In this document: positions 7,557-19,493 of the stretch, piece after piece
Position numbering within the stretch: position 1 is the stretch's first letter
Layout of the letters: each line of letters opens with the position of its first letter
IMG/VR virus record: IMGVR_UViG_3300006736_000048
Location: 1 to 32,214 of that record
Source: a virus
DNA: 32,214 bases
Reading direction: 5' to 3' (one strand)
The notes under the pieces: generated by a model
Database searches by the model: none
What the model saw: only the letters and a program-made list of their open reading frames with translations
Told to the model about the DNA's origin: nothing
Position numbers and translations under genes: made by a program

Positions 7557-7580
7557 CTGCGCGGTTTGGTCGCTGTGCAG
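7557..7580 (+). other. Hairpin with TTTGGTCG loop, copy 1
   Basis: CTGCGCGG (7557-7564) pairs with CTGTGCAG (7573-7580), with two G-U pairs, and encloses the loop TTTGGTCG. The same 8-base loop is enclosed by a different 10-bp stem at 17726-17753. Same loop with different compensating stems suggests selection for an RNA structure or for a loop-binding partner. It lies just before a terminator. Confidence 0.5.
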
Positions 7581-7607
7581 TCGAGAGACATTTTGGTTCC
7601 TTTTGTT

Positions 7608-7639
7608 CAGCCTCGGCAGAAATGTCGGGGCTGATTTTT
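7608..7639 (+). terminator. Rho-independent terminator closing the late/lysis cluster
   Basis: CAGCCTCGGCA (7608-7618) pairs over 11 bp, with two G-U pairs, with TGTCGGGGCTG (7623-7633) around a GAAA tetraloop, and is followed by ATTTTT. This is a textbook intrinsic terminator. It ends transcription coming from the tail and lysis genes just upstream of the first TTGACA promoter of the early region. The sequence GGTTCCTTTT at 7595-7604, exactly complementary to the phage's ribosome-binding site, lies immediately upstream. Confidence 0.85.
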
Positions 7640-7659
7640 GTAATGCGTCGCTCTAGGTG

Positions 7660-7689
7660 TTGACAATAGAAATGGAACCGTAGTAAGGT
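7660..7689 (+). promoter_or_regulatory. Sigma-70-type promoter P1
   Basis: A perfect -35 box TTGACA at 7660-7665 lies inside the conserved block TAGGTGTTGACAATAG that recurs at 13850, 15260 and 17791. The -10 region is weaker: TAAGGT begins 18 bases after the -35 box, or TAGTAA 15 bases after. It follows the terminator at 7608-7639 and precedes the gene at 7726 with a short leader, so it is likely to start the early transcript. Confidence 0.7.
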
Positions 7690-7725
7690 TGACCTAGTTA
7701 CGAAACCAGATAAGGAACCAAGACC

Positions 7726-7947
7726 ATGAAACTCAGCACAGCAATCAACCAGTCCTCAAACATCAAAGCAATCGTAGTTGTCGGCGACAAGTCCAGCTAC
7801 ATCAAGGTCAGCCGAGCAACAGCCCGTGAACTGGTTGGTGAGTATCTCGACGAGACTTGGGACGGAGAGTCATACTACGACGAGAGTGGAACATCAATCG
7901 CCACGATTATTCTCGGCGCAGGTTTCAAGCACCTTTACATCGGCTAA
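7726..7947 (+). CDS. Small hypothetical protein (first early gene)
   Basis: A 73-residue acidic protein with a strong ribosome-binding site (TAAGGAACCAAGACC before the ATG). It is the first gene after promoter P1. It has the look of a small alpha/beta protein (IKAIVVVGDKSSYIKVSRATA, then IATIILGAGFKHLYIG) and no Cys or membrane segment. It is followed by intergenic hairpin element copy 1. The position right after a strong promoter suggests an early host-takeover or anti-defence protein, but no family is recognised. Confidence 0.65.
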   Translation: MKLSTAINQSSNIKAIVVVGDKSSYIKVSRATARELVGEYLDETWDGESYYDESGTSIATIILGAGFKHLYIG

Positions 7948-7955
7948 CCGCCGCC

Positions 7956-8025
7956 CACATACACCCAACAGCCCCTGCCGGTACGCCGAGCAGGGGCATA
8001 AGGGTTAAAACGGTCAAGCGACCGT
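7956..8025 (+). repeat. Intergenic double-hairpin element, copy 1
   Basis: CACATACACCCAAC is followed by a compound hairpin: GCCCCTGC (7971-7978) pairs with GCAGGGGC (7990-7997), CGG pairs with CCG around TACG, and ACCC (7963-7966) can pair with GGGT (8002-8005) after an ATAA spacer. The box ends in GGGTTAA. A second hairpin, ACGGTC-AAGC-GACCGT (8010-8025), lies before the next gene's AAAAGGAACC site. There is no U-tract, so it is not a plain terminator. Four further copies have different but compensating stems. Confidence 0.75.
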
Positions 8026-8050
8026 AAGCACTAGAAAAGGAACCACAGAT

Positions 8051-8308
8051 ATGGCATACGAAATTATAGATGGTAACGACAAAGCCGGGAACAGAATCTT
8101 TACTGTTAAAGACCCTCACCCGATGTTTCCGGTCGTTTACGCAATCTACGGCAGCAGGGGCGACGCAGAAGAAGCACTTGCCGAGATAAAGCGGGACGAG
8201 GACATTCACGACTCATTCGACGCTTGGATACACGCCAAAGCCGACGAGCATGGCGTACACCGTTCAGAGATTGCCAAGCAACTCGACGTTCATCAATTCA
8301 TGCGCTAA
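8051..8308 (+). CDS. Small hypothetical protein
   Basis: An 85-residue acidic protein preceded by GAAAAGGAACCACAGAT. It starts as a strand-rich segment (MAYEIIDGNDKAGNRIFTV), then VYAIYGSRGDAEEALAEI resembles a small alpha/beta domain, and the C-terminus is helical and His-rich (HAKADEHGVHRSEIAKQLDV). No catalytic motif is apparent. It lies between intergenic hairpin elements 1 and 2, which isolates it as a single-gene cassette. Confidence 0.65.
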   Translation: MAYEIIDGNDKAGNRIFTVKDPHPMFPVVYAIYGSRGDAEEALAEIKRDEDIHDSFDAWIHAKADEHGVHRSEIAKQLDVHQFMR

Positions 8309-8318
8309 TCATCAACCG

Positions 8319-8404
8319 ACATACACCCACCCAACGCCCCACCTCGCACAGCGTCGTGGGGCTTAGGGGTTAACCGGGCAATGGGAACGCCTCACTGTAC
8401 CCGG
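8319..8404 (+). repeat. Intergenic double-hairpin element, copy 2
   Basis: ACATACACCCACCCAAC is followed by GCCCCAC (8336-8342) pairing with GTGGGGC (8356-8362), with an inner CGC-ACA-GCG stem separated by CT/TC bulges. TTAGGGGTTAA follows. The second hairpin uses CCGGG (8374-8378) and CCCGG (8400-8404) with a longer loop. The stem differs from copy 1 but preserves the pairing and the flanking boxes. A third hairpin, GGGGCAGCA (8407-8415) with TGCTGCTCC (8430-8438), fills the rest of this 156-base gap. Confidence 0.7.
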
Positions 8405-8464
8405 CAGGGGCAGCAGCAGCGGACACTGGTGCTGCTCCGCAACTAACAAAAGGAGCGCGAGGGA

Positions 8465-9175
8465 ATGTTTAGAAATAAACAAGACAAAACTGAATATCGT
8501 AATTTACCGAAACAACCGAGACAGATGCTGGAGATACTTGCGAAGCTGGACAGCATCAATCAACGACTCGATCAGGCGAGCATATGGGCGAAAGCTGCTG
8601 ACCTGATTCTCCATGACGTACAGGAAAAGCTGGACACTCTACTGCTGCTTAAGCGGAGCGCACAGGTGGAACGTAACAGCAGGCAGCGTGTAGAGCCGGT
8701 TGAGGTAATACCGCAGGTCGCCGTCCAGAATGTATATCTGGACGAAGTAACGCCTAATGCTGAACCCGACAAGCTAGACACTCTGCTGTACGCTCGTGAC
8801 GGAAAACTCAAAAGGGTTTACTACAACACCGACCCGGTTGGTTACATCGAACGGAAAATCTATAACGCAACAGCATCGCACAAAACTGCAACTTGCATTT
8901 TCTTATCGGCTCTGTGGTCTGCGGTTAATACTCCTGCAACAAATCGCCGCAAACACATTACAGCAGCCAAGCTGGTTGAGCATCTGCTGGAACTGTTATC
9001 GGACAAGAGGATTATTGCTGTCAAAGCAAAGCCCCGAAAGACGAAAGTTCCTTCCGGGGATATTGGGTTCCAACTGGCTTCCTCTGAAACCCCGGTGCTA
9101 GACCGGTATTCGGTACTCTCAGACGAAGAAGCCACGGAAATCTTGAACTTGTTTGCGAGGTGGAACAATGGGTAG
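8465..9175 (+). CDS. Hypothetical protein with N-terminal coiled-coil
   Basis: A 236-residue protein preceded by AAAAGGAGCGCGAGGGA. Residues about 20-75 (MLEILAKLDSINQRLDQAS, then LILHDVQEKLDTLLLLKR) form a heptad-like helix likely to oligomerise. The middle part is polar. The C-terminal 100 residues look like a small helical domain (ITAAKLVEHLLELLSDKRI, then DEEATEILNLFARW). It overlaps the next gene by 8 bases and opens the replication operon that continues to 13843. No known family is recognised; a replication-accessory role is inferred from context only. Confidence 0.6.
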   Translation: MFRNKQDKTEYRNLPKQPRQMLEILAKLDSINQRLDQASIWAKAADLILHDVQEKLDTLLLLKRSAQVERNSRQRVEPVEVIPQVAVQNVYLDEVTPNAEPDKLDTLLYARDGKLKRVYYNTDPVGYIERKIYNATASHKTATCIFLSALWSAVNTPATNRRKHITAAKLVEHLLELLSDKRIIAVKAKPRKTKVPSGDIGFQLASSETPVLDRYSVLSDEEATEILNLFARWNNG

Positions 9176-9629
9176 TCAAGACCAAATAATCCGACTAGAC
9201 ACGATGGAAGGTGCGGAAGCGGAGCGCACAGGTGGAACCGTAACGGATAGCCAAGAGTACATACGATTCCGACTGGACACGCTGGAAAGCATGAAAGCGG
9301 AGCGTAAGGAACTCACCGATAAGATCGGCAAGATGACCGGGCAAATCCAGCGGCAACTTGAAGCTGACGATGCTTTACTTTACGAGGACGATTCTTGGGT
9401 CGCAGAGATTAAGGTGTCGGCGGTCTGGAACGAAGAAGCATTGAAGCCGCTGCTGGAGCATTACGACTCTGATGATCTTGAAGCATTACTGACGAAGCCC
9501 AAGCCTCGGACATTCAATAAGACGAAGTTGAACAAAGAAGCAAAGAAGGGCGGCGACGTAAAGCGGATTATCGACTTCGCGAAACAAGAAGGATTGCCAG
9601 AACTAACCATCAGGCAGAAGGGAAAATAA
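9168..9629 (+). CDS. Hypothetical protein with helical core, replication operon
   Basis: A 153-residue charged protein. I chose the ATG at 9168, which follows AGGTGGAACA. Residues about 30-65 form a long amphipathic helix (YIRFRLDTLESMKAERKELT, then IGKMTGQIQRQLEA), followed by a strand-like DSWVAEIKVSAVWNEE and a Lys-rich TKPKPRTFNKTKLNKEAKKG segment. This pattern resembles small phage proteins encoded beside recombination or replication genes, but I cannot assign a family. It overlaps the previous gene by 8 bases and the next by one. Confidence 0.6.
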   Translation: MGSQDQIIRLDTMEGAEAERTGGTVTDSQEYIRFRLDTLESMKAERKELTDKIGKMTGQIQRQLEADDALLYEDDSWVAEIKVSAVWNEEALKPLLEHYDSDDLEALLTKPKPRTFNKTKLNKEAKKGGDVKRIIDFAKQEGLPELTIRQKGK

Positions 9630-9823
9630 TGGCACGAATCATCAAGGGCGCAGAGGATACGCCACGCAACCGTATAATCCTCGACCTGCACCGTAAGGGA
9701 CTCTCGTACAACAAGATAAGTCGGGAGATGCTTCGCCGGGGTTTCGACCTTACGGCGCAGCGGTGTCAGGCGATTGTGAAAAGTAAAGAAGCAGCCGCAG
9801 CAGCGGCAAGAGGAACAAAGTAA
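9629..9823 (+). CDS. Small helix-turn-helix protein
   Basis: A 64-residue basic protein. Residues 15-52 (RIILDLHRKGLSYNKISREM, then LRRGFDLTAQRCQAIVKSK) read as a helix-turn-helix: a 'GLSYNKISREM' turn like those of resolvase or sigma region 4 proteins, followed by a recognition-type helix. The C-terminus is Ala-rich. It overlaps its neighbours by one base each, inside the replication operon just before the putative ssDNA-binding gene. It may be a DNA-binding regulator or a replication accessory. Confidence 0.65.
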   Translation: MARIIKGAEDTPRNRIILDLHRKGLSYNKISREMLRRGFDLTAQRCQAIVKSKEAAAAAARGTK

Positions 9824-10506
9824 TGACGAGCGAATATGGAACCATCGAAATAGACTGGCAGCCAGTCCTGAAGCCCGACGGCATCACACCAGTAACAAGC
9901 AAGGACGGAACGCCGATTGTGCAATCTCCGACTCTGCTGCTGACACCAAAGCTGCAAGGCGAATACGGCGGTTGGGCATTTGAGGACTTGGAAGGCTTCT
10001 GGACGTACCGTGGAGCCGCTTCGGACATTGTGCAGAACGTCGAATCAGAAGTTGTACTTTCACTTGGTGGGTTCAAGCAGAACGGCAATCGGTACAACAA
10101 CATCAACTCAATCAAGCCTGTAAACCGCCCTATGGCGAACGGACAGGCGCAGCAGGGGGCTTGGCAGGGTAGTAACGCTATTGCGCCATCGCAAACGCCC
10201 TCTGGTGAAGCACGGAACGAGTCGATCAGGGAACAGGCGTTCTTCAATAACCTCAACCCTGACATTCTGGCGCAGCTACCAGCGGAGCAGCAGGAAGCAT
10301 TACTGGTCGCATATTTCGACACCGGGATGCTGATGCTTCGTGAGTCCGTTAGGAAGCGTGCGCTGGCGAAACTGAATGAGTCCAAGGAGCCTGAGATTCC
10401 AGACACGCCAATGGTCAACGCAGCTATCGAAGCGGGTGGCGTTGTGACTAATATAGAATCGGCGACACCGCCACTGGAGAACGTCGAACAAATCCCGTGG
10501 GGATAA
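9823..10506 (+). CDS. Putative ssDNA-binding protein
   Basis: A 227-residue protein directly upstream of the primase-helicase. The N-terminal 100 residues are beta-rich with aromatic residues (EYGGWAFEDLEGFWTYRG, then LGGFKQNGNRYNNINSIKPV), the composition expected of an OB-fold ssDNA-binding domain. A low-complexity Gln/Ala/Asn linker follows. The C-terminus ends LENVEQIPWG, an acidic tail with a final Ile-Pro-aromatic like the DDIPF tip of bacterial SSB, which recruits partners. Neither feature is conclusive. The gene order SSB then primase-polymerase is common in phages. An alternative is a recombination mediator. Confidence 0.45.
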   Translation: MTSEYGTIEIDWQPVLKPDGITPVTSKDGTPIVQSPTLLLTPKLQGEYGGWAFEDLEGFWTYRGAASDIVQNVESEVVLSLGGFKQNGNRYNNINSIKPVNRPMANGQAQQGAWQGSNAIAPSQTPSGEARNESIREQAFFNNLNPDILAQLPAEQQEALLVAYFDTGMLMLRESVRKRALAKLNESKEPEIPDTPMVNAAIEAGGVVTNIESATPPLENVEQIPWG

Positions 10507-10533
10507 CAACCGAAAACGAAGGGAACCAAGACC

Positions 10534-12537
10534 ATGAACAAAGTGGACATTGCTTTGGATTTCGCGGGGCGGGGCTGGAAAGTCCTCGCCCTGCAACCCA
10601 ACAGCAAGATACCAATTAAGTCGGTACTCCAAGAACACGGCTCAACCGATGCGACCGACAACCCAACCAAAATCAGGATGCTGTGGGGGGAGTATCCGAA
10701 CGCTAACGTCGGCATCGCAACCGGGGAAGTATCAGGGCTGACAGTCCTAGACCTCGACGATGACAGCGCGAAAGCCAGAATCGAAGCCTTGCCGGGATTC
10801 ACGCACCCGCCACTGACGTATGGCGTAAGGACTCCGCGGGGGTATCACCTGTATTACCGCTTCGACGGAAGTATCAGCCAGTCGGCTGGCAGGGTTGAGT
10901 CAGCGGATATTAGGAATAACGGCGGCTATGTCGTGGCGGCTGGCTCTGAGGTTGACGGAGTTACTTACAAAGCCCTGAACAGCCTACCTGTTGCCACTTG
11001 GGACTTCCCGCCGATATTCAAGAATGGCTACCAAGCGACCCGCCCCGCTGTAAAAGATTGGGTGACTCAACTGCAAACGTCAGGTGAAACACAAGGCGGT
11101 CGCAATCACCAGTTCTTCCGCTTGGCTTGTGCGTACAGACAGATGGGTCACGAAGTCGAAGAAATCCAAATGCTATTGGATACTGCCAACGCCAAAAGTA
11201 ATCCACCTTTGGACGAACGTGAACTGGCAAGCGTTATTGCTTCTGCGATGAGGTATGACGCTGGCAGGAAATTGCAATACTCAGGAAAGCTGGTTAACCC
11301 GCCACTGGTGGAATCTCAGACCGACCGGCGCACGACGTTCTACTGGGCAGAGCCAGACATTCGCGTGGAGTTGAGCAAGATCGACCGAAGGGGAACAAGA
11401 GCCTACGCCAAGATGCGGGTCTGGACTGGCGAGCGGGGCATGATCTACATGGCTTCGATTTCGCTATACGACCAGCGCAGTCGGAAAGAGATCGTGGACT
11501 ACCTGATGCACTCGCACCCGCTTGCGGACTGGAACTCGATACTGCATCACATCGCTGCCATCGTTGATAGCCACTCAGAAAAGACCGGGGTAATTGTTGA
11601 CCTAGCAGCGCACGTTCCTGAATCGCTAAGTCCTTATCTTGTGTATCCGTTAGTCCGGCAGAACCAATCGACGGTTCTATATGCGGACGGCGGCAGCGGC
11701 AAGTCTACGTTTGCTCTTGCAGTAGCGGCGACAGGAGCGACACAGGCGACGTTCATACCCGGCGTGACTAATACCGCCCAACGACCGATCAAGACGTTGT
11801 ATTTGGATTGGGAAGCTGACAGTGATGACGTTTCCAAGATGCTCAAAGAATTGAGTCGTGGAGCGCAGGTGAAAATACCTGACGGACATATCCACTACCA
11901 GAGCATGAGCGGGGCATTTATTGACCACGTTGACGATTTGGTGGAAACGATTGTGCAGAACGATATTGACCTGATAATTGTGGACTCGCTGGTGGCTTCG
12001 GCTGGCGGTGACGTAACCGATGCGGAAGCTGCTCGGTTCTTCCACAATGCTGTTCGGTCGCTGAACGTGGCTTCGATTGGGATTACTCACACCAACAAAT
12101 CGGACGGTCTATATGGCAGTCGGTTCTTCTGGAACCTCGCCCGGCAAGTGTTCCGATTGACGAGCGTTTCGGAGCCTGAGACTAATCCGGTGCTGGGGCT
12201 GTACCACGAAAAGTCGAACCGCTCAAAACTGATCGCCCCGGTCGCTTACGATGTGGAATATGGCAACGCTGAATCTGACAACGCATTTATCAAATATGTT
12301 GCCCAAGATATTCAGACTGTGCCAGAACTTGCGAAGGGAACGAGCCTTAGAGATAGGCTGATCGGATTGATGCGGAACGGCTCGATGACGATAGAGCAAC
12401 TGGCAGATCGTACAGGCGCACCAGACAACGTGATACTAGCGACGCTGGAGCGCATGACCGATACGTTCGTCAGGGTCGCTGGCATGGGCAACGCATGGAC
12501 GCTTATGAGTATCCAAATACCGCAAGGGGATGCGTGA
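10534..12537 (+). CDS. Primase-polymerase/helicase fusion (prim-pol plus RecA-like ATPase)
   Basis: A 667-residue replication protein preceded by GAAGGGAACCAAGACC. Residues 1-165 are an archaeo-eukaryotic-type prim-pol domain: GLTVLDLDDD carries the metal-binding Asp73 and Asp75, GYHLYYR contains His105, and DIRNNGGYVVAAGS supplies Asp125. Residues 185-245 form a helical primase C-terminal domain. Residues 370-560 are a RecA-like ATPase with Walker A ADGGSGKS at 384-391 and Walker B DLIIVDS at 479-485. The C-terminal 65 residues look like a winged helix. It should synthesise primers and unwind DNA at the fork. With no DNA polymerase gene in the window, the phage probably borrows the host replicase. 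Confidence 0.88.
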   Translation: MNKVDIALDFAGRGWKVLALQPNSKIPIKSVLQEHGSTDATDNPTKIRMLWGEYPNANVGIATGEVSGLTVLDLDDDSAKARIEALPGFTHPPLTYGVRTPRGYHLYYRFDGSISQSAGRVESADIRNNGGYVVAAGSEVDGVTYKALNSLPVATWDFPPIFKNGYQATRPAVKDWVTQLQTSGETQGGRNHQFFRLACAYRQMGHEVEEIQMLLDTANAKSNPPLDERELASVIASAMRYDAGRKLQYSGKLVNPPLVESQTDRRTTFYWAEPDIRVELSKIDRRGTRAYAKMRVWTGERGMIYMASISLYDQRSRKEIVDYLMHSHPLADWNSILHHIAAIVDSHSEKTGVIVDLAAHVPESLSPYLVYPLVRQNQSTVLYADGGSGKSTFALAVAATGATQATFIPGVTNTAQRPIKTLYLDWEADSDDVSKMLKELSRGAQVKIPDGHIHYQSMSGAFIDHVDDLVETIVQNDIDLIIVDSLVASAGGDVTDAEAARFFHNAVRSLNVASIGITHTNKSDGLYGSRFFWNLARQVFRLTSVSEPETNPVLGLYHEKSNRSKLIAPVAYDVEYGNAESDNAFIKYVAQDIQTVPELAKGTSLRDRLIGLMRNGSMTIEQLADRTGAPDNVILATLERMTDTFVRVAGMGNAWTLMSIQIPQGDA

Positions 12538-12613
12538 GCAGATGTTCCAAATAGTACATTTGAAAACTATCCAAGAATTTTGGAATGAATTCTAAAGAGG
12601 AAGGAAGTTTGGA

Positions 12614-12823
12614 ATGACCCCAAGAGCAGAACCCCGCTCCACCATCGGAGAGTTGAGGCGTATAGCAAAACTCGACGTAATCGGTGAGGACGTTCGGGGG
12701 ATTGAAAGTTGTCCGAGGTGCGAAGGCATCTTGAGGTGGGGCGAAGATAGCCGGTACGAAGATGTCGTGTCCTGCGTCTACTGCGGATGGCGACCGAGTG
12801 CAAAGTTGGAGATGGAACTATGA
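12614..12823 (+). CDS. Small zinc-ribbon protein
   Basis: A 69-residue protein containing CPRC at residues 33-36 and CVYC at 54-57 with a hydrophobic WRP after the second pair. This is a typical four-Cys zinc ribbon of the kind found in small phage transcription or nucleic-acid-binding proteins. It follows a 76-base gap holding the imperfect palindromes TCCAAGAATTTTGGA and TTCCAAAT-AGTAC-ATTTGAA. A 10-base direct repeat, TTTGGAATGA, occurs in the leader (12579) and at this start (12608). Its stop overlaps the next start (ATGA). Confidence 0.7.
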   Translation: MTPRAEPRSTIGELRRIAKLDVIGEDVRGIESCPRCEGILRWGEDSRYEDVVSCVYCGWRPSAKLEMEL

Positions 12824-12933
12824 ACGTGAAATGGCAACCGACATTCCGCTGTCCGCATGGCTGCGACAAGTTCTTCGGCAGCAGCGTGGCATTGAAATGG
12901 CATCTGGAAGAATATAAAGAGGAAGCACGATGA
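12820..12933 (+). CDS. 37-residue C2H2-like zinc-finger peptide
   Basis: A very short gene in ATGA overlap with both neighbours. The peptide carries FRCPHGCDKFFGSSVALKWH, which matches the classical C2H2 finger spacing: Cys11-x3-Cys15, Phe19 four residues on, Leu25, then His28. The expected second His three to five residues later is absent (Tyr32). It could be an incomplete finger or use His13 as a ligand. Coupled translation with the zinc-ribbon gene and the alpha-CTD-like gene suggests that these three small proteins act together on DNA or transcription. Confidence 0.65.
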   Translation: MNVKWQPTFRCPHGCDKFFGSSVALKWHLEEYKEEAR

Positions 12934-13295
12934 CTGACTACGACTACTACATATACAACACACTAACTCAAATACGGGATATTCTCCGACTAGGATTTGC
13001 TAAAGAAATAATTGAGGAAAATCTAAGGCTGGCTGAACATAAAGTAAGTAAGGAAAACTTTGTAAAACAAATTCTCGACTATACGGATGAACTGATTAGC
13101 GAAGGGGAGTTAGAGCAATCACAGAAACACGTAGGAACGAGAGTATCTAGTTGCTTGACCAGAGCAGGGATTACCTCATTTGAGGAATACGCCAACTGGG
13201 GCGACAAGGAGTTGGTAAAGATTCGCAACTTCGGTAGGCGCACATTAGAAGTTGCAACAAAGATAAGGGCATGGCACGAAAGAAAAACACGATGA
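12930..13295 (+). CDS. RNA polymerase alpha-CTD-like protein
   Basis: A 121-residue protein with an N-terminal helical region (residues 1-62) and a C-terminal domain (64-118) matching the RNA polymerase alpha-subunit C-terminal fold. It reads VGTRVSSCLTRAGITSFEEY, then LVKIRNFGRRTLEVATKI. In the E. coli alpha-CTD, Arg265, Cys269, Gly296, Lys298 and Ser299 contact UP-element DNA. Here the aligned residues are Arg71, Cys75, Gly102, Arg104 and Thr105; Asn268 aligns with Ser74 and Glu302 with Val108. It could compete with, or replace, host alpha-CTD contacts at promoters. Tandem helix-hairpin-helix DNA binding is an alternative. Neighbours are small zinc proteins and a resolvase. Confidence 0.8.
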   Translation: MTDYDYYIYNTLTQIRDILRLGFAKEIIEENLRLAEHKVSKENFVKQILDYTDELISEGELEQSQKHVGTRVSSCLTRAGITSFEEYANWGDKELVKIRNFGRRTLEVATKIRAWHERKTR

Positions 13296-13843
13296 CTGAC
13301 ATTCTGGCAATCGACCCCGGCACGACTAAATCAGGTTGGTGCTACATTCAGGACGGCGAGCCGCTGGATTGGGGCTGGTTCGATAACGAGAAGATTTACA
13401 CGCTGATCGGTTCGTTCGGTTGCCAAGTCGTGATCGAGGACGTTGCCCATTACGGTATGCCGGTCGGCAGGGACGTATTCGAGACAATCCGCTGGACTGG
13501 ACGCTTTGACCGGCACGCAGACACGCTTGGCTTGGCGGCGACGTATGTTACCCGTCCAGATGTGAAGCTGGCTCTGTGTGGCTCGACTAGGGCGAACGAC
13601 GGCACGATCAGGCAAGCATTGATAGACCGGTACGGTGGTGACGAGATTGCTATTGGCGGGAAGAAGTGTAAGGGCTGCAAGGGCAAAGGCTGGCTCGGTC
13701 GAGATCATGCGCCCTGCGAGGATTGCGACAGCCGGGGGGCTGTAACGCCAGCCGGGGTGCTTCACGGTATTAGCGGTCACGTATGGTCTGCGCTAGCTGT
13801 CGGATTGACGCATCACGACAGGTTGCTGATAAATCGGCTGTAA
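13292..13843 (+). CDS. RuvC-like Holliday junction resolvase with zinc-finger insertion
   Basis: A 183-residue protein from the ATG at 13292, which overlaps the previous stop (ATGA). An in-frame ATG at 13271 would add MARKKNT. ILAIDPGTTKSGW at residues 4-16 has the catalytic Asp8, and VVIEDVAHYG contains Glu49, as in RuvC-type nucleases. Between the catalytic parts lies CKGCKGKGW (126-134) and CEDC (142-145), a DnaJ-type zinc finger inserted in the fold. The last motif, SGHVWSALAVGL (161-172), has His in place of the usual first Asp, as in some phage RuvC relatives. It should resolve branched DNA before packaging. Confidence 0.8.
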   Translation: MTDILAIDPGTTKSGWCYIQDGEPLDWGWFDNEKIYTLIGSFGCQVVIEDVAHYGMPVGRDVFETIRWTGRFDRHADTLGLAATYVTRPDVKLALCGSTRANDGTIRQALIDRYGGDEIAIGGKKCKGCKGKGWLGRDHAPCEDCDSRGAVTPAGVLHGISGHVWSALAVGLTHHDRLLINRL

Positions 13844-13849
13844 TAAGTG

Positions 13850-13879
13850 TTGACAATAGCAAGCAGCGGGTAATAAGTT
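13850..13879 (+). promoter_or_regulatory. Sigma-70-type promoter P2
   Basis: TTGACA at 13850-13855 within TAAGTGTTGACAATAGCAA, the same block as P1, P3 and P4, with TAAGTT 18 bases downstream or ATAAGT at 17. A short hairpin GTCAA-CT-TTGAC and a strong GAAAAGGAACC site follow before the gene at 13923. Confidence 0.7.
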
Positions 13880-13922
13880 TTAAGGGTCAACTTTGACACA
13901 GCTTGAAAAGGAACCAACCGAC

Positions 13923-14261
13923 ATGAAAAACCGACAACTCATAATTGAGCAGCTTGATTGGCTCAACTCTCACATGGGTCACTACGCTTCTTACGACCAT
14001 TTCCGATCAACAAGCAATGGCTCACACGCCGTACTACGTGCCGATGTGAACCAGCTTCTAAATCTGGTTGATGCTCTAAGCTGGACTGAACAGCAGTTTG
14101 CTTTCAAAGGCAAAGTCACTGACGATTTTCAGCAGACTCTTGAAGCGATCTACCGATCAGCACGATCAATGGACATAACGGTTATGGAAGCCAATGTTCG
14201 CTTGCTCATCATTGACCCAATCACCGAATGGGCGACCAAGCCAAAACTCGCCAGCAAGTAA
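13923..14261 (+). CDS. Hypothetical protein
   Basis: A 112-residue soluble, helical, His- and Asp-rich protein. The start at 13923 follows GAAAAGGAACCAACCGAC, so I prefer it to the in-frame earlier codon at 13893. It contains IIEQLDWLNSHMGHYASYDH and LLNLVDALSWTEQQF, consistent with helices, and no known motif. It is the first gene after promoter P2 and is followed by intergenic hairpin element 3. Confidence 0.6.
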   Translation: MKNRQLIIEQLDWLNSHMGHYASYDHFRSTSNGSHAVLRADVNQLLNLVDALSWTEQQFAFKGKVTDDFQQTLEAIYRSARSMDITVMEANVRLLIIDPITEWATKPKLASK

Positions 14262-14267
14262 TCACCG

Positions 14268-14335
14268 CACATACAGCCCACAGCCCCTGCCGGTCTAACC
14301 GAGCAGGGGCATAGGGGTTAACAGGGGCTTCCCTG
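14268..14335 (+). repeat. Intergenic double-hairpin element, copy 3
   Basis: CACATACAGCCCACA precedes a compound hairpin: GCCCCTGC (14283-14290) pairs with GCAGGGGC (14303-14310), and CGGT (14291-14294) pairs with ACCG (14298-14301) around CTA. ATAGGGGTTAA follows. The second hairpin is CAGGG-GCTT-CCCTG (14322-14335). The gene's AAAAGGAACC site follows a few bases later. Confidence 0.75.
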
Positions 14336-14358
14336 AATAACCTAAAAGGAACCGACTG

Positions 14359-14607
14359 ATGGGAATGAAAATACAAGCAATCAATAGAGGTGATGGACTC
14401 GACATCGAGGTCGGCAAGACTTATTACATCGAGGACACCGGCTACAACATAACTGGCGAGTATCCGTTGACGGCTCTGGAAGTTATCTCAGCACCGACCG
14501 CATCAGGAATAGAGGTGCGAGCGGAAATCGAAATCGAGAATCCGATTACTGAATCGTGCAAGTATTACGACATTTCGATTGACGGGATTGTCGAGGACGC
14601 AAACTAA
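14359..14607 (+). CDS. Small hypothetical protein
   Basis: An 82-residue beta-rich acidic protein (GDGLDIEVGKTYYIEDTG near the start, and SGIEVRAEIEIENPIT near the end), with a single Cys. It is preceded by AAAAGGAACCGACTG and overlaps the next gene by one base (TAATG). It could be a small beta-barrel partner of the ART-like protein that follows, because they are the only two genes in this coupled unit before the 15059 gene. No family is recognised. Confidence 0.6.
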   Translation: MGMKIQAINRGDGLDIEVGKTYYIEDTGYNITGEYPLTALEVISAPTASGIEVRAEIEIENPITESCKYYDISIDGIVEDAN

Positions 14608-15062
14608 TGGCACGACCGAAAGTTCTCTATCACTACACCAGCCCTGTTCATGTCCCGGCGATTCTGGAAACGGGGTTCTTGAAAGTGACTGAATCGAATG
14701 TCAGTTTCAAGATTGAGAACGCCGCTCCACAGGTCGTATGGCTGACACCTGAGACACTCATTCGCCCACCTAAGTATCTTGCCAGCATTGCAAACAAGAC
14801 AGCCTACCGTTTCGTGGTCGCTCCTGCGGACGCACAGCGTTCAGACAAGTGGCTCCGGTGTAACGGAGCATCCAGTGAGCAGATACGGCTGCTGGAGGAG
14901 GCTGGAGGTGGAACAAAGGCGACAAGGTGGTACGTCGTAGCCCGACCGATTCCAAGAGAAGAATGGCTTGCGCTGGAAATGCGTGAAGGCAACCGATGGA
15001 TACAAATTTATTCGGCATCCGACTTATTCTTACTCCGAGCAAAATGGGGGGCAGCGGAATGA
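14607..15062 (+). CDS. ADP-ribosyltransferase-like (HYT-motif) protein
   Basis: A 151-residue protein beginning MARPKVLYHYTSPVHVPAIL and ETGFLK. 'LYHYTS...L..IL.TGFL' is the N-terminal signature of ADP-ribosyltransferase and DarT-like folds, where the His and following aromatic residues bind NAD. A strand VVWLTPE follows near residue 45, as in phage relatives. I see no certain catalytic Glu; candidates lie in the C-terminal half (EEWLALEMREGN). An active enzyme could modify host proteins or nucleic acids; an inactive relative could bind NAD or ADP-ribose. It is coupled to genes at 14359 and 15059. Confidence 0.55.
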   Translation: MARPKVLYHYTSPVHVPAILETGFLKVTESNVSFKIENAAPQVVWLTPETLIRPPKYLASIANKTAYRFVVAPADAQRSDKWLRCNGASSEQIRLLEEAGGGTKATRWYVVARPIPREEWLALEMREGNRWIQIYSASDLFLLRAKWGAAE

Positions 15063-15253
15063 GCAGCTACACCGTCACAGTTACAGACAAGAGCGGCAAC
15101 ACTGTTCACAGTATTCCAGTCGCTTCTGCCGACGGCTACGTCTTTCCGCTGACAGCAGCGGGCGCAGAAGAACTATCCGCAGAGATCGAGCGAGCCATTG
15201 ATGAGCATGAGGCGCATCTGGAAACTATCGCAAAGACCGAAATCGCTATGTAA
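15059..15253 (+). CDS. Small hypothetical protein
   Basis: A 64-residue protein in ATGA overlap with the ART-like gene. It starts at 15059 just after GCAGCGGA; an upstream in-frame ATG at 14996 lies inside the previous gene and is rejected. It has a beta N-terminus (SSYTVTVTDKSGNTVHS) and an acidic helical C-terminus (EELSAEIERAIDEHEAHLET). It could regulate or bind the ART-like protein, but there is no direct evidence. It ends just before promoter P3. Confidence 0.55.
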   Translation: MSSYTVTVTDKSGNTVHSIPVASADGYVFPLTAAGAEELSAEIERAIDEHEAHLETIAKTEIAM

Positions 15254-15259
15254 TAGGTA

Positions 15260-15289
15260 TTGACAATAGCAATGAGCGGGTAGTAAGTT
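15260..15289 (+). promoter_or_regulatory. Sigma-70-type promoter P3
   Basis: TTGACA at 15260-15265 inside TAGGTATTGACAATAGCAA, with TAAGTT 18 bases downstream (or TAGTAA 15 bases downstream). The leader contains AGTTACGAAACCAGATA, which is also found downstream of P1, then AAAAGGAACC before the gene at 15331. Confidence 0.7.
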
Positions 15290-15330
15290 TAACGCAGTTA
15301 CGAAACCAGATACGAAAAGGAACCGACCAA

Positions 15331-15624
15331 ATGCCCAAGATTGCAATTACATACATCAGCCGCTCAACGCAGGAACTCATTGAGAACATAGCGGAGAACG
15401 CCAGCACTTACACTTACACCAAAGTAGTAGAGGCTCACGACAACCCGCTTACCCGCCCCGGTCATCGTGACGGATTTGGTAGTCAAGTCGTTGAATATAG
15501 CCACGGTGTTGCTCTCGCTATCGTGACCCAGTATTACATGGCGATGAGGTCAGGACTCGCAAGGGTAGATGACAAGCACGCTATTGATGAAATCGTTTCA
15601 CAGATTTGGGCAGCAGTTCGATAA
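15331..15624 (+). CDS. Small hypothetical protein
   Basis: A 97-residue protein beginning MPKIAITYISRSTQELIENI. It contains a His-rich central stretch (NPLTRPGHRDGFG, YSHGVALAIV) and a helical C-terminus (DKHAIDEIVSQIWAAV). It is preceded by the promoter P3 leader and GAAAAGGAACCGACC, and followed by intergenic hairpin element 4. No family is recognised. Confidence 0.6.
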   Translation: MPKIAITYISRSTQELIENIAENASTYTYTKVVEAHDNPLTRPGHRDGFGSQVVEYSHGVALAIVTQYYMAMRSGLARVDDKHAIDEIVSQIWAAVR

Positions 15625-15632
15625 CACCAACC

Positions 15633-15704
15633 CACATAAACCAACAGCCCCTGCCGGTCTAACCGAGCAGGGGCATAGGAGTTAAAGAACCCCGACGTTC
15701 GGGG
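15633..15704 (+). repeat. Intergenic double-hairpin element, copy 4
   Basis: CACATAAACCAACA precedes GCCCCTGC (15647-15654) pairing with GCAGGGGC (15667-15674), with CGGT/ACCG inside around CTA. ATAGGAGTTAA follows. The second hairpin is CCCCGA-CGT-TCGGGG (15690-15704) before AAAAGGAACTGACC and the ArdC-like gene. This copy has the clearest substitution in the trailing box (GGAGTT for GGGGTT). Confidence 0.75.
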
Positions 15705-15722
15705 GAACAAAAGGAACTGACC

Positions 15723-16637
15723 ATGACAACGAAATTTAGCGCATACGACAAAATCACAGACCAGATCATCGAGGCTCTGGAGCAGGGCGAGATTCCGTGG
15801 GAAAAGCCGTGGACTGCATCAGCCAATCCACCGCAGAGCGTACACGGCAAAGCCTACCGGGGATTCAACTCCTTATGGCTCGGCTTCGTCGCTGGTAGGC
15901 TCGGCTACACTGACTCACGTTGGATTACATACAACCAAGCCAAGAAGCAGGGTGGCAAAGTTCGCAAGGGTGAAAAGTCTCAGTCGGTAACGCTGTGGAT
16001 GCAGAATTACAAGCACCAGACTTCTTGCCCCGTAAGGAAAAGCAGCCAGTCGTGCGCCAACGTCGCCAAAGCCAAGTGCCAGCGATTCATGTTCATGCGG
16101 TATTACTCGGTGTTCAACGTCGAGCAGGTTGACGGCTTAGAACTCAAGCCACAGGCGACTGGAACGCTCAACGACTTCGACCCGATTGAAGCAGCGATGG
16201 AAGTGGTTGACGAATACCGAAACCGTGAAGGCGTTGCGATCAACTGGAAGGGCGATGCAGCTTACTACTCACCTGACCGTGACGAAGTAACTGTTCCCGA
16301 CCGTCGGACTTTCCGATCTGCTGAAAGCTACTACTCGACCGTGTTCCACGAACTTGCCCACAGCACCGGACACAAGAGCCGCTTGAACCGCAAGGACAAT
16401 ACGCAGACGATTCGCTTCGGCGACCCGGTCTACGCTCAAGAGGAACTGGTGGCAGAGATGACAAACGCTTTTGTTGGCGGCGTAACCGGTGTCACAAGCG
16501 ATGTAGAGGCAGATCAGCGGGTAGCCTACATTCAGTCTTGGCTGAAGGCTCTCCGTAACGATAAGAAGATGGTAGTGATAGCAGCAGGTCAGGCGCAGAA
16601 GGCAGCAGACCTGATTCTCAACAGAGAGGTGAAGTGA
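15723..16637 (+). CDS. ardC: ArdC-type antirestriction protein (ssDNA-binding domain plus zinc metallopeptidase)
   Basis: A 304-residue protein. Residues 5-135 match the ArdC N-terminal ssDNA-binding domain (IEALEQGEIPWEKPW, GFNSLWLGF, ITYNQAKKQGGKVRKGEKS, YYSVFNVEQ). The C-terminal domain is a zincin-like peptidase with HELAHSTGH at residues 209-217 (zinc ligands His209 and His213, catalytic Glu210) and YAQEELVAEM at 238-247 as the likely third-ligand helix. In plasmid ArdC, this protein protects incoming DNA from type I and type II restriction. Here it likely shields phage DNA during early infection, which fits the predicted DNA modification operon. The leader carries AAAAGGAACTGACC. Confidence 0.85.
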   Translation: MTTKFSAYDKITDQIIEALEQGEIPWEKPWTASANPPQSVHGKAYRGFNSLWLGFVAGRLGYTDSRWITYNQAKKQGGKVRKGEKSQSVTLWMQNYKHQTSCPVRKSSQSCANVAKAKCQRFMFMRYYSVFNVEQVDGLELKPQATGTLNDFDPIEAAMEVVDEYRNREGVAINWKGDAAYYSPDRDEVTVPDRRTFRSAESYYSTVFHELAHSTGHKSRLNRKDNTQTIRFGDPVYAQEELVAEMTNAFVGGVTGVTSDVEADQRVAYIQSWLKALRNDKKMVVIAAGQAQKAADLILNREVK

Positions 16638-16638
16638 T

Positions 16639-16986
16639 ATGACCGACTTTATGGATACGGCACTAAATTACCAGCCGGGCATCAGGGTTACTCCTGATGC
16701 CAAACGCTGGGTGATAACGAACGGCATCGGGCAACTGCCGCTGTGCCGTGTATGCGCCCAGCCGATGCAGGATGGACACGTAGATTGCACCTGCCCCAAG
16801 AACCACCCTGAGAACTGCGACCGACCGACCTACGACCAGTTGAAGGCTCAACACGACGCACTCGTAGCAGCGTTGGAACGACTCGTTGATACCGTAGACG
16901 TTCGTGCTAGTGAATTCTCGACACACAGCATTCAGTTTCAAATGTCAGTTACGAAAGCACGAGAAGCACTGGAACAGGTGAAGTAA
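16639..16986 (+). CDS. Small Cys-rich hypothetical protein
   Basis: A 115-residue protein one base after the ArdC stop. It has CRVC followed by CTC within PLCRVCAQPMQDGHVDCTCP (residues 34-53), a likely zinc site. A helical C-terminal half follows (YDQLKAQHDALVAALERLVD, SVTKAREALEQVK). The short C-terminal SVTK motif recurs in the gene at 17264. It lies in an ArdC-led unit of five genes. Confidence 0.6.
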   Translation: MTDFMDTALNYQPGIRVTPDAKRWVITNGIGQLPLCRVCAQPMQDGHVDCTCPKNHPENCDRPTYDQLKAQHDALVAALERLVDTVDVRASEFSTHSIQFQMSVTKAREALEQVK

Positions 16987-17264
16987 TGGAAATGGAACTA
17001 ATAACCCAAGAACGCAACGGTGGCTCTAGGCTCGTCCACAGCAGCGACCGGGCTGTAATCAACCGAGAGTTCAATAAAGCATGGCGCAGGCGAGTAGACA
17101 CACGCGTCTATGTGGGCAATGACCCGCACCCGCTAGCTGAAATCTACCAGAACCACGGGCAGCATGAAGAATTCCGTTACGATCAGTGGATTTGGTACTC
17201 AGGACTGGACGTTGTTGGCATCTCTGTACAGACTTCGCAAGCAGCCGCAGAGCAGGTGAAGTAA
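16986..17264 (+). CDS. Small hypothetical protein
   Basis: A 92-residue protein overlapping both neighbours by one base. The N-terminal part is basic (INREFNKAWRRRVDTRVYVG) and the C-terminal part aromatic (EEFRYDQWIWYSGLDVVGIS). No motif is recognised. Its start is preceded by CAGGTGAAGTA, the same ribosome-binding sequence as the next gene, so the two junctions look alike (AGGTGAAGTAATG). Confidence 0.6.
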   Translation: MEMELITQERNGGSRLVHSSDRAVINREFNKAWRRRVDTRVYVGNDPHPLAEIYQNHGQHEEFRYDQWIWYSGLDVVGISVQTSQAAAEQVK

Positions 17265-17458
17265 TGAACCTCGCCACTCAACTCCAAGAAATGGGCGTAC
17301 ACGTTGAAGTGAAATGCCCGTCACATCACCCTGACCCTGATACATCTCACACCCTTACGGAATACTGCGATGACGCTCGTATTCAGTGGGTTCAAATGGC
17401 AGGTTCAGTTACGAAAACGCCCGAACAAGGCTGGAAGGAAATGCAGGAAGGTAAATAA
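17264..17458 (+). CDS. Small hypothetical protein
   Basis: A 64-residue protein starting at the ATG within AGGTGAAGTAATG. An earlier in-frame ATG at 17186 lies inside the previous gene and is rejected. It has an N-terminal helix (NLATQLQEMGVHVEVKC), a His- and Asp-rich segment (SHHPDPDTSH), and ends SVTKTPEQGWKEMQEGK. No family is recognised. Confidence 0.55.
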   Translation: MNLATQLQEMGVHVEVKCPSHHPDPDTSHTLTEYCDDARIQWVQMAGSVTKTPEQGWKEMQEGK

Positions 17459-17459
17459 C

Positions 17460-17681
17460 ATGAGCAGCGTAAGTGATCGAGCAACAGTCGATGAGATCAT
17501 CGCAGCTAATGGCAGCGACGGTATCACGCACATAATCGAATACCAGAATCAGTTTGATGGTCGCCTCGCTTGGAAGCTGTGCGCGGGTGAGAGGCATTAC
17601 GAGTACGCTATGGCAGAAGGGGCGTTCATCGAGCCGCTCCTGATCTGGCGTAGGAAGCAAATTGGATTAGGAGATTTCTAA
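17460..17681 (+). CDS. Small hypothetical protein
   Basis: A 73-residue protein starting at 17460, preceded by CAGGAAGGTAAATAAC. It reads SDRATVDEIIAANGSDGITH near the start and EGAFIEPLLIWRRKQIG near the end, a compact alpha/beta type without a known motif. It is the last gene before the terminator at 17680-17724. The gene order suggests it is part of the ArdC unit. Confidence 0.55.
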   Translation: MSSVSDRATVDEIIAANGSDGITHIIEYQNQFDGRLAWKLCAGERHYEYAMAEGAFIEPLLIWRRKQIGLGDF

Positions 17682-17724
17682 GGAACCAGCGATATGCTTG
17701 CTGCTTCGGCAGCAGGTTCCTTTT
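17680..17724 (+). terminator. Terminator/attenuator hairpin with UUCG loop
   Basis: AAGGAACC (17680-17687) pairs with GGTTCCTT (17715-17722). Inside, GCTGC (17700-17704) pairs with GCAGC (17709-17713) around a TTCG loop. TTTTC follows the stem. It is a good terminator, and it also contains the phage's ribosome-binding sequence AAGGAACC followed by a 27-codon open frame from 17694. The stem would hide that site, so an attenuator role is possible. Confidence 0.7.
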
Positions 17725-17725
17725 C

Positions 17726-17753
17726 GCCCCGGCAGTTTGGTCGCTGCCGGGGC
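17726..17753 (+). other. Hairpin with TTTGGTCG loop, copy 2
   Basis: GCCCCGGCAG (17726-17735) pairs perfectly with CTGCCGGGGC (17744-17753) around TTTGGTCG. The identical loop at 7565-7572 has a different stem. Both copies are adjacent to a GGTTCCTTTT sequence and 70-90 bases upstream of a TTGACA promoter, so the whole terminator-promoter unit appears duplicated. Confidence 0.6.
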
Positions 17754-17790
17754 AACTTATTTAATAGCCTAAATTGATATGCTCTAGGTG

Positions 17791-17819
17791 TTGACAATAG
17801 CAATATACACGCTTACTAT
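17791..17819 (+). promoter_or_regulatory. Sigma-70-type promoter P4
   Basis: TTGACA at 17791-17796 and TACTAT at 17814-17819 with a 17-base spacer: the best-formed of the four promoters. It carries the shared block TAGGTGTTGACAATAG. The leader includes the hairpin CGTTCC-ACA-GGAACG (17821-17835) and GCACTAAAAGGAATC before the gene at 17863. Confidence 0.8.
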
Positions 17820-17862
17820 TCGTTCCACAGGAACGAAACAAGCACTAAAAGGAATCAAGACC

Positions 17863-18774
17863 ATGACCAAACGAACAGACATACACCGACCGAGCACACC
17901 AGACTTCGACCCTGACTCTTATAAATACATCGGTGTTATTGACTTGAACCCGTTTGAATTTAGGGACAGCGATGGGCGTGTTGAAGCTGTTATGGACGAA
18001 ACCGATATCGACTTCGACGAGGTTGAGAATCTCATCAAGCGTGGATACCAGCCAGCAGCACATTACGGCATAGGCGAAATCACGCCAGACTTCATCGTTG
18101 ACCGCATTTACGAGGACATGAACAACTGCGGTCACTGTGGCTCACGCTTACGCTTCGCAGCGGTGATGGCACATGAGCAGAGCATGGAGTTCATCGTTGT
18201 TGGGCAAGACTGCCTGACCAACCGCTTCAACGAGATGAGCGCAGCCGACTTCAAGGCATTACGGGACGCAGCTACAAAGGCAGCGCAGGAATCCAAGAAG
18301 GCTGAACAGCGAGCAGCACTTATAGCCGAACACCCTGAGTTGGCAGGAGCAGCAGAATCAAGCAACTCGTTTATCCAAGACGTAATGCGAAAGTTCTACC
18401 GGTACGGCGACCTGAGCGACCGCCAGATTGCAGCCGTCAAGACTGCGCTGGTACGTGACGCAGAGCGAGCCGAGCGCGAAGCAGTATGGGCTACCGAAGC
18501 GGAACTGGCTGCGGACGCTCCTACGGGCAAGATAACGGTCACAGGCGAGATTCTTTCGCTCAAGTCTCAAGAGACAATGTTCGGCTCAACGCTGAAGATG
18601 ATCGTCAAGACTGAAGCTGGCTGGAAGCTATGGGTGACAGTACCGAGCAGCATCATGGGAACCAACGACGCTCTAACTGGCAAGACAGTCACGCTAACAG
18701 CGACGGTTACGCCTAGCGACCGTGACTCCAAGTTCGCTTTCGGCAAGCGACCAAGCAAAGCGAGTTTGGTCTAA
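17863..18774 (+). CDS. Zinc-binding hypothetical protein with OB-like C-terminus
   Basis: A 303-residue protein. The ATG at 17863 follows AAAAGGAATCAAGACC; an in-frame ATG at 17788 lies upstream of the promoter's -10 box and is rejected. CGHCGSRLRFAAVMAHE begins near residue 87 and VVGQDCLTNRF follows, a zinc-binding arrangement common to a phage and plasmid family. A helical, Ala/Glu-rich middle follows (residues about 125-215). The C-terminal 75 residues (GKITVTGEILSLKSQE, GWKLWVTVP, GKTVTLTATVTPS) resemble an OB-fold. It may bind nucleic acid. It ends with KRPSKASLV, shared with the next gene. Confidence 0.65.
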   Translation: MTKRTDIHRPSTPDFDPDSYKYIGVIDLNPFEFRDSDGRVEAVMDETDIDFDEVENLIKRGYQPAAHYGIGEITPDFIVDRIYEDMNNCGHCGSRLRFAAVMAHEQSMEFIVVGQDCLTNRFNEMSAADFKALRDAATKAAQESKKAEQRAALIAEHPELAGAAESSNSFIQDVMRKFYRYGDLSDRQIAAVKTALVRDAERAEREAVWATEAELAADAPTGKITVTGEILSLKSQETMFGSTLKMIVKTEAGWKLWVTVPSSIMGTNDALTGKTVTLTATVTPSDRDSKFAFGKRPSKASLV

Positions 18775-18974
18775 TGGCAACCACGCAGAAAAAATGCGGT
18801 CACTGTGAAAAATCGTTCGGCAGACGCATCGGCTTAGATGCTGGAACTTGTGTGCGTCGCCGCCCACCGAACACCGACCACTGTGGCAAGCGACTCTGCT
18901 ACCACTGCTCACGCGTTCAAATGGGTAAATCAAAGTGCATGAAGCGACCAAGCAAAGCAAAGTTGGTCAGCTAA
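18774..18974 (+). CDS. Small Cys-rich (zinc finger) protein
   Basis: A 66-residue basic protein with KKCGHCEKSFG, TCVRRRP, HCGKRLCYHC and KCMKRPSK: eight Cys residues likely bind two zinc ions. It overlaps the previous gene by one base and shares its C-terminal KRPSKA(S/K)LV and the underlying DNA, including a GACCAA...TTGGTC hairpin (18749-18771 and about 18945-18967). This suggests a fragment duplication. A nucleic-acid-binding role is likely. Confidence 0.6.
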   Translation: MATTQKKCGHCEKSFGRRIGLDAGTCVRRRPPNTDHCGKRLCYHCSRVQMGKSKCMKRPSKAKLVS

Positions 18975-18980
18975 CCAACC

Positions 18981-19041
18981 CACATACACCCCAACGCCCG
19001 GCTTCATGCCGGGTTTAGGGGTTAAAGAGCCAAGCGGCTCT
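18981..19041 (+). repeat. Intergenic double-hairpin element, copy 5
   Basis: CACATACACCCCAACG precedes CCCGGC (18997-19002) pairing with GCCGGG (19008-19013) around TTCAT. The outer ACCCC (18988-18992) pairs with GGGGT (19018-19022) across an AA(CG)/TTTA internal loop. The second hairpin AGAGCC-AAGC-GGCTCT (19026-19041) has the same AAGC loop as copy 1 with a different stem. GCACTAGAAAAGGAACT follows. The inner stem shares no sequence with copies 1, 3 and 4 but folds alike. Confidence 0.75.
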
Positions 19042-19324: not shown

Positions 19325-19345
19325 ATTCCCCCTGATGCGAGTTAG

Positions 19346-19374
19346 CCCCGGCAGAAGTGTCGGGGTTTTCTTTT
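19346..19374 (+). terminator. Rho-independent terminator closing the early region
   Basis: CCCCGGCA (19346-19353) pairs with TGTCGGGG (19358-19365) around GAAG, followed by TTTTCTTTT. The core is related to the terminator at 7608-7639 (CGGCAGAAATGTCGGGG). It separates the early genes from the DNA modification operon. Confidence 0.85.
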
Positions 19375-19392: not shown

Positions 19393-19493
19393 GAAACTTA
19401 AGCAACTAAGTCACTCGGTAACTTATGTAACTCCAAATATATATTTAGTTAAACAGTTACTCAGTAACTAAGACTCTAGGGACTTATGTTACT
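19393..19493. repeat. Inverted array of 8-bp AGTTACTT-type repeats, locus R2
   Basis: Units GAAACTTA, AGCAACTA, AGTCACTC and GGTAACTT follow each other with an exact 8-bp period from 19393 to 19424, with TGTAACT at 19426. After an AT-rich core (about 19433-19454) come AGTTACTC and AGTAACTA (19455-19470), and a last TGTTACT at 19487-19493. The arrangement (repeats of opposite orientation around an AT-rich core) parallels locus R1 at 7208-7273. It lies in the 377-base gap before the DNA modification operon and could be an origin, partition or operator site. Confidence 0.65.

What the first reader, a model, noticed from the sequence alone, without database searches (positions are those of the whole stretch)
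7956..19041. Five copies of a covarying intergenic double-hairpin element
Copies at 7956, 8319, 14268, 15633 and 18981 share CACATACACCCAAC, then a hairpin, then (T)TAGGGGTTAA, then a second hairpin and AAAAGGAAC. The inner stems are GCCCCTGC/GCAGGGGC, GCCCCAC/GTGGGGC and CCCGGC/GCCGGG: different sequences, pairing kept. The outer ACCCC/GGGGT pairing across an internal loop is also kept. Each sits after the stop of a single early gene. No U-tract follows, so it is not a standard terminator. This looks like a family of structured RNA, perhaps an RNase processing site, mRNA 3' shield or site for a phage RNA-binding protein.
Basis: seen in the sequence. Interest (0 to 1): 0.78.

Follow-up and report, generated by a model that had tools for sequence, protein, structure and literature searches.

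The report
Structured RNA between early phage genes
Uncultured marine phages, some of them unrelated to each other, carry many copies of the same folded RNA segment just after the stop codons of early genes; it is a previously uncatalogued RNA family that probably marks where a long phage message is cut or protected to give separate messages.

Summary
The five copies are real, and they are the only ones in the window. A covariance model found 28 non-redundant copies among 14 uncultured viral contigs, including phages with different terminases and almost no other similarity to the window.

The base pairing is selected at the RNA level. In the inner hairpin, 263 cells are Watson-Crick, 9 are G-U and none is A-C, and 7 of its 12 pairs show compensatory changes. 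Hairpin 2 is found in 20 of 28 copies, against 4.1 in shuffled sequence.

Copies start 2-12 nt after a stop codon in 25 of 27 cases. In the window's early region, each of the 8 gene gaps over 60 nt holds either a promoter (3) or the element (5), never both. "AAAAGGAAC" is the next gene's Shine-Dalgarno, not part of the element.

There was no Rfam match, no convincing match in 50,697 cultured-phage records, and no hit to a strict pattern in GTDB genomes.

Best reading: an intercistronic mRNA processing or end-protection element that works like the early RNase III sites of T7. Cleavage was not tested. The main rival is a cis-acting RNA such as the HK022 put element.

The parts
7956..8008 (+). 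copy 1, hairpin 1 module (CACAUACACCC..GGGUUAA)
   Evidence: 94.8 bits, MFE z -6.6
8010..8025 (+). copy 1, hairpin 2 (ACGGUC-AAGC-GACCGU)
8035..8043 (+). Shine-Dalgarno region of gene 8051-8308 (AAAAGGAAC); not part of the element proper
8318..8373 (+). copy 2, hairpin 1 module
   Evidence: 52.4 bits; syntenic copy in L003 6706 with compensatory change
8374..8404 (+). copy 2, second domain (CCGGG...CCCGG); a third hairpin follows up to about 8440
14268..14321 (+). copy 3, hairpin 1 module
   Evidence: 77.7 bits
14322..14335 (+). copy 3, hairpin 2 (CAGGG-GCUU-CCCUG)
15633..15685 (+). copy 4, hairpin 1 module (GGAGUUAA variant)
   Evidence: 69.1 bits
15690..15704 (+). copy 4, hairpin 2 (CCCCGA-CGU-UCGGGG)
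18981..19025 (+). copy 5, hairpin 1 module (short inner stem GCCCGGC/GCCGGGU)
   Evidence: 71.6 bits
19026..19041 (+). copy 5, hairpin 2 (AGAGCC-AAGC-GGCUCU)
7660..7688 (+). promoter-like repeat TTGACAATA at the head of the unit holding copies 1 and 2
   Evidence: repeat, not tested as promoter
13850..13878 (+). promoter-like repeat at the head of the unit holding copy 3
15260..15288 (+). promoter-like repeat at the head of the unit holding copy 4
17791..17819 (+). promoter TTGACA-17-TACTAT at the head of the unit holding copy 5
7607..7639 (+). intrinsic terminator with U-tract, before the first early unit
17726..17753 (+). intrinsic terminator-like hairpin, end of the third unit
19344..19372 (+). 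intrinsic terminator with U-tract, end of the last unit

Best explanation
The element is a cis-acting RNA that acts as punctuation inside polycistronic early phage mRNAs. Hairpin 1 (CAUANA-ACCC-loop-stem-WUA-GGG-UUAA) folds just downstream of a stop codon, clear of the terminating ribosome. Hairpin 2 starts 0-4 nt after UUAA and ends about 10 nt before the Shine-Dalgarno of the next gene. Most likely a host endoribonuclease cuts in the internal loop of hairpin 1 or in the UUAA linker. The upstream message would then end in a stable hairpin and the downstream message would start with one, so each block of early genes gets its own mRNA with protected ends, as at the T7 early RNase III sites. Shown: structure, covariation, strand, placement, spread over unrelated phages. 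Inferred: cleavage, the enzyme, end protection.
For: RNA-level pairing: inner stem 263 Watson-Crick, 9 G-U, 0 A-C cells, and 7 of 12 inner pairs with double changes. Hairpin 2 is unrelated in sequence between copies but present in 20 of 28, against 4.1 expected, right after UUAA. Placement: stop-to-element median 8 nt, 25 of 27 within 2-12. In the window's early region the 8 gaps over 60 nt are 3 promoter and 5 element, with no overlap; the other 16 junctions overlap or are at most 27 nt. Downstream genes have no other promoter-like site, so it cannot be a full terminator. Small early genes sit in different units in different phages while the element stays at junctions. In L152 the element ends 2 nt before the 5' end of a 140-nt tmRNA-like gene, so hairpin 2 is there replaced by an acceptor stem. 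Phages with different terminases and almost no shared genes carry it, which points to host machinery. T7 early junctions, fetched as a control, show the same layout: a hairpin with conserved flanks just after a stop codon.
Against: No transcript ends are known and no nuclease was tested. The inner stem can be as short as 7 bp with a 5-bp outer stem, short for a classical RNase III site. Four copies (window 8318, L003 6706, L153, L011 3644) have no simple hairpin 2. The invariant CAUANA/GUUAA flanks suggest recognition of sequence, not only of a helix. The T7 sites are not matched by the model, so that likeness is architectural only. The host is unknown, so which RNases it has is unknown.
Confidence: 0.47

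Rival explanations
1. A cis-acting transcription element like HK022 put: the nascent two-hairpin RNA binds host RNA polymerase and suppresses pausing or termination farther down the early unit.
For: Two stem-loops in about 80 nt. The published putRNAs are about 70 nt with two stem-loops, lie downstream of the early promoters (putR about 270 nt from its start site) and need no phage protein (PMC9378689). Most promoter-like sites here have an element about 260-490 nt downstream (positions). Sharing between unrelated phages fits a host polymerase target.
Against: Up to three copies follow one promoter in L003, where one would do; placement follows stop codons rather than promoters; one copy abuts a tmRNA-like gene; early units still end in intrinsic terminators; the model does not hit HK022.
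Confidence: 0.16
2. An uncut mRNA 3' shield and translation insulator: hairpin 1 stops 3' exonucleases and ribosome read-through or re-initiation, hairpin 2 keeps the ribosome-binding site open. Comparable to REP-type intercistronic hairpins.
For: Tight spacing to the stop codon, very stable folds, and presence only at uncoupled junctions.
Against: Does not explain the invariant CAUANA, internal-loop A and GUUAA residues, or the fixed UUAA-hairpin 2 linkage.
Confidence: 0.17
3. Binding site for a protein, phage- or host-encoded, that represses or activates translation or stability of early genes.
For: Invariant single-stranded flanks and internal-loop residues around a variable stem. A small zinc-ribbon protein (window 12614-12823, L003 10495-10911, L152 9091-9537, L171 1-319) was found only in element-bearing contigs among those fetched.
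Against: The zinc-ribbon protein is not next to the elements and was not found in L172, L011 or L012 (partial contigs); zinc-ribbon proteins are common in phages.
Confidence: 0.1
4. Partial terminator or attenuator that lowers expression of the genes behind it.
For: Stable GC-rich hairpin after a stop codon. In L016 at 514 the element's left flank (ACATACACCAACAGCCCC) is joined to a U-tract terminator.
Against: No U-tract in any of the 28 copies, while the same genome uses U-tract terminators; genes behind it lack other promoters.
Confidence: 0.07
5. A DNA-level element (operator, recombination site or small mobile repeat) whose hairpin is incidental.
For: Several alleles are nearly identical between non-homologous junctions, and element-bearing gene cassettes have moved between units and phages.
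Against: 9 G-U against 0 A-C changes, compensatory changes, fixed orientation with transcription and fixed distance to stop codons.
Confidence: 0.03

Closest known systems
Early RNase III processing sites of bacteriophage T7 (R0.3, R0.5, R1, R1.1, R1.3)
   Same: Several copies per genome, confined to uncoupled early gene junctions, just after a stop codon; a hairpin with a variable distal stem and conserved flanks (in T7 ACTCAAGG...CCTTTATGAT).
   Different: No sequence or model match; a second hairpin follows here; the outer stem is shorter; cleavage untested.
HK022 put antitermination RNA
   Same: About 70-80 nt, two stem-loops, early transcripts, no obvious phage factor (PMC9378689).
   Different: Two copies in HK022 against 5-10 or more here; placed after stop codons; no model match.
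Start-associated sequences SAS/ESAS of cluster K mycobacteriophages
   Same: Repeated, early (non-structural) half only, in long intergenic gaps before start codons, with inverted repeats (PMC3203893).
   Different: ESAS arms do not keep RNA pairing according to the authors; here pairing is kept while sequence changes, and the element is tied to the upstream stop rather than to the start.
REP/BIME intercistronic hairpins of enterobacteria (from general knowledge)
   Same: Hairpins between genes of an operon, thought to protect the upstream mRNA.
   Different: Phage-borne, one orientation, one copy per junction, different sequence; not compared here.

Membership tests
T7-type RNase III processing site | cleaved by RNase III | not testable with these tools
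   needs RNA and enzyme
T7-type RNase III processing site | irregular hairpin in early intercistronic gaps with conserved flanks | tested here: met
T7-type RNase III processing site | sequence/structure homology to the T7 sites | tested here: not met
   model R1 has no match in T7 1-8000 at E<=10
HK022 put | two stem-loops of about 70 nt in early transcripts | tested here: met
   PMC9378689
HK022 put | sequence/structure homology to put | tested here: not met
   no match in the HK022 genome at E<=10
HK022 put | suppresses termination through RNA polymerase | not testable with these tools
   needs a transcription assay
SAS/ESAS | motif within a few nt of the start codon | tested here: not met
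   hairpin 1 lies 2-12 nt after the upstream stop in 25 of 27 cases; distance from UUAA to the SD varies from 12 to 110 nt
SAS/ESAS | inverted repeat arms without RNA pairing | tested here: not met
   covariation present; PMC3203893
Intrinsic terminator | U-tract directly after the hairpin | tested here: not met
   GUUAA in all 28 copies; not listed by the terminator scan on the + strand
Any Rfam 15 family | covariance-model match | tested here: not met
   one unrelated sub-threshold match, at 28157

The most novel reading that the evidence does not exclude
The element is a new small self-cleaving or host-factor-triggered RNA that cuts early mRNAs between genes and also sets the 5' end of a phage mini-tmRNA: one processing signal shared by unrelated marine phages of a common, still unknown host.
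Probability: 0.07. Interest if true: 0.88.

Novelty: new variant of a known kind. Interest (0 to 1): 0.57.

Why it matters
If right, these phages use a portable RNA signal to divide long early transcripts into independently maintained messages, so that accessory genes can be shuffled between units without losing proper mRNA ends. The same signal in otherwise unrelated phages suggests a common host enzyme. That would make the RNA-decay machinery of an uncultured marine host testable, and would give a sequence signature linking unrelated viruses to one host group.

Tried and rejected
Known RNA family: no Rfam match. Intrinsic terminator: no U-tract in any copy. Promoter inside the element: no TTGACA/TATAAT-like pair there, and hairpin 2 has no fixed sequence. 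Idea that promoter transcripts also begin with the same 5' hairpin: mixed result; 6 of 16 leaders have a stem from the predicted start site (0.7 expected), but the strongest palindromes (GTTCC-N2-3-GGAAC) begin right after the -10 box and look like DNA operators, so it was not used as evidence. Host: terminase relatives lie in Planctomycetes, Chloroflexi, Proteobacteria and others, the element pattern is absent from GTDB genomes, and seven such genomes gave no model match; host unresolved. More distant terminase relatives whose early region is held in part (L019, L022, L025) show no element, so it seems confined to a narrow set of phages. Pattern hits L114, L117, L121, L158, L159, L161, L163 and L164 look like chance: no CAUANA flank, and no significant model match. 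The extended lower stem UA-n-A/UUA is plausible, but its columns never vary, so covariation can neither support nor refute it.
Full report
OBSERVATION. The five repeats are present at 7956, 8318, 14268, 15633 and 18981, all on the + strand and all directly downstream of early genes. Each folds far better than dinucleotide shuffles (z -6.6 to -2.7, 0 of 200 shuffles as good). A covariance model (R1) scanned without filters over both strands finds exactly these five (52-95 bits); the next matches are weak partial ones on the opposite strand of the same sites. The model was built partly from these copies, so its scores on them are by construction; the gap to everything else is what counts.

ANATOMY. 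From 28 copies: 5' CAUANA, then the C-rich 5' arm of a short outer helix; an internal loop with an invariant A on each side; an inner hairpin of 7-12 bp, often with one bulged nucleotide; the 3' arm WWA-DG(R)G; an invariant GUUAA; then, in most copies, 0-4 nt later a second hairpin of 5-6 bp with a 3-5-nt loop; then a short linker and the Shine-Dalgarno of the next gene.

RNA-LEVEL SELECTION. In the inner stem 263 cells are Watson-Crick, 9 are G-U and none is A-C; on the complementary strand the 9 G-U would be A-C mismatches, so the + strand RNA is what pairs. Seven of 12 inner pairs and five of 6 hairpin-2 pairs show changes on both sides; the covariation score is 0.288 against 0.127 (sd 0.012) in shuffles and at most 0.081 with slid partners. 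Caveat: the alignment was fitted to this structure and the copies are related. A test independent of that alignment: a stem right after UUAA is found in 20 of 28 copies against 4.1 (maximum 10) in 500 shuffles. At a syntenic junction, window 8318 GCCCCAC/GTGGGGC and L003 6706 GACCCAC/GTGGGTC differ by a compensatory change. The outer helix shows no covariation.

PLACEMENT. Distance from stop codon to element: median 8 nt, 25 of 27 within 2-12 nt; the outliers are 19 and 44 nt. Distance from UUAA to the next Shine-Dalgarno is mostly 17-29 nt but reaches 110 (the value 1 for L003 15609 is a motif-matching slip, and the true site there is about 20 nt on). The element is thus tied to the upstream stop more than to the downstream start. 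Of 24 gene junctions between 7726 and 19324, 16 overlap or are at most 27 nt; the other eight are three promoter gaps and five element gaps, with no overlap. Genes behind an element have no other promoter-like site. Small early genes have moved between units: window 8051-8308 behind copy 1 has its homologue in L003 at 14263, behind the element at 14174 in another unit.

DISTRIBUTION. Pattern and model searches found the element on 14 viral contigs including the window: close relatives (L003, L004, L006, L008-L012, L153) and three further groups: L152 (three copies; no nucleotide similarity to the window beyond the elements), L162/L166 (primase 35% identical), and L172 (terminase 23% identical). 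L152 shares only three small or structural proteins with window/L003, at low similarity. The element was not found in most terminase relatives at or below about 83% identity, although many of those hold little early sequence. Nothing convincing in 50,697 cultured-phage records, nothing in GTDB genomes with a strict pattern, no Rfam family. The host is unknown.

A TELLING CASE. In L152 the copy at 11667 (minus strand) ends 2 nt before a 140-nt tmRNA-like gene (Rfam RF00023, 66.6 bits; sequence). Hairpin 1 and UUAA are intact, but hairpin 2 is replaced by the acceptor stem. This is what one expects if hairpin 1 plus UUAA mark a boundary at which a new RNA 5' end is made next to a paired stem. 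It is one case, and RNase P could mature that end without the element.

MECHANISM. The best fit is an intercistronic processing and end-protection element. Inferred steps: the ribosome stops; hairpin 1, starting just outside its footprint, folds; an endonuclease cuts in the WUA loop or UUAA linker; hairpin 1 caps the 3' end of the upstream message and hairpin 2 the 5' end of the downstream one. T7 provides the precedent: its early junctions, refolded here, show hairpins with conserved flanks immediately after stop codons. That likeness is architectural; there is no homology. The put RNA of HK022 (PMC9378689) is the main rival, since it too is a factor-free two-stem-loop RNA of early transcripts, but multiple copies per unit and linkage to stop codons fit it less well. 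Cluster K ESAS repeats (PMC3203893) resemble this in distribution, but their authors report that pairing is not kept, the opposite of this case.

LIMITS. No transcript data, no host, partial contigs. The 28 copies are not independent: several alleles were evidently copied between junctions. Model E-values are rough.

Noticed in passing
L152:11474-11613 (minus strand): A 140-nt tmRNA-like gene (RF00023, 66.6 bits) on a viral contig, less than half the usual length, with a complete tRNA-like end and a possible tag frame GCAAATACGGCAGGGTTGACCGAGTAG (ANTAGLTE, then stop); ARAGORN does not report it.
   Followed up: partly
L152:4795-5670 and L152:6235-6681: The same viral contig encodes a TatC translocase (PF00902) and a VTT-domain membrane protein.
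   Followed up: no
window 8374-8455, L003 about 6760-6830, L153 minus strand about 1575-1655: Downstream of copy 2 a further conserved structured leader: GGGAACGCCTCACT in a loop plus a third hairpin whose arms differ between phages. Possibly a separate regulatory leader of gene 8465-9175.
   Followed up: partly
window 17791, L003 18043, L006 894, L011 3044 and 4009: GTTCC-N2-3-GGAAC palindromes directly after the -10 box of TTGACAATA promoters, probably operators of a phage regulator.
   Followed up: partly
window 7200-7270 and 19395-19480: AT-rich tandem TAACTNAGT-like repeats flanking the early region on both sides, possibly replication-origin or partition sites; similar repeats in L016 near 560.
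   Followed up: no
L016:514: Left half of the element (TACATACACCAACAGCCCC) joined to a U-tract terminator resembling window 19344, suggesting recombination between element and terminator.
   Followed up: partly
window 12614-12823; L003 10495-10911; L152 9091-9537; L171 1-319: A small zinc-ribbon protein family found, among the fetched loci, only in element-bearing contigs.
   Followed up: partly
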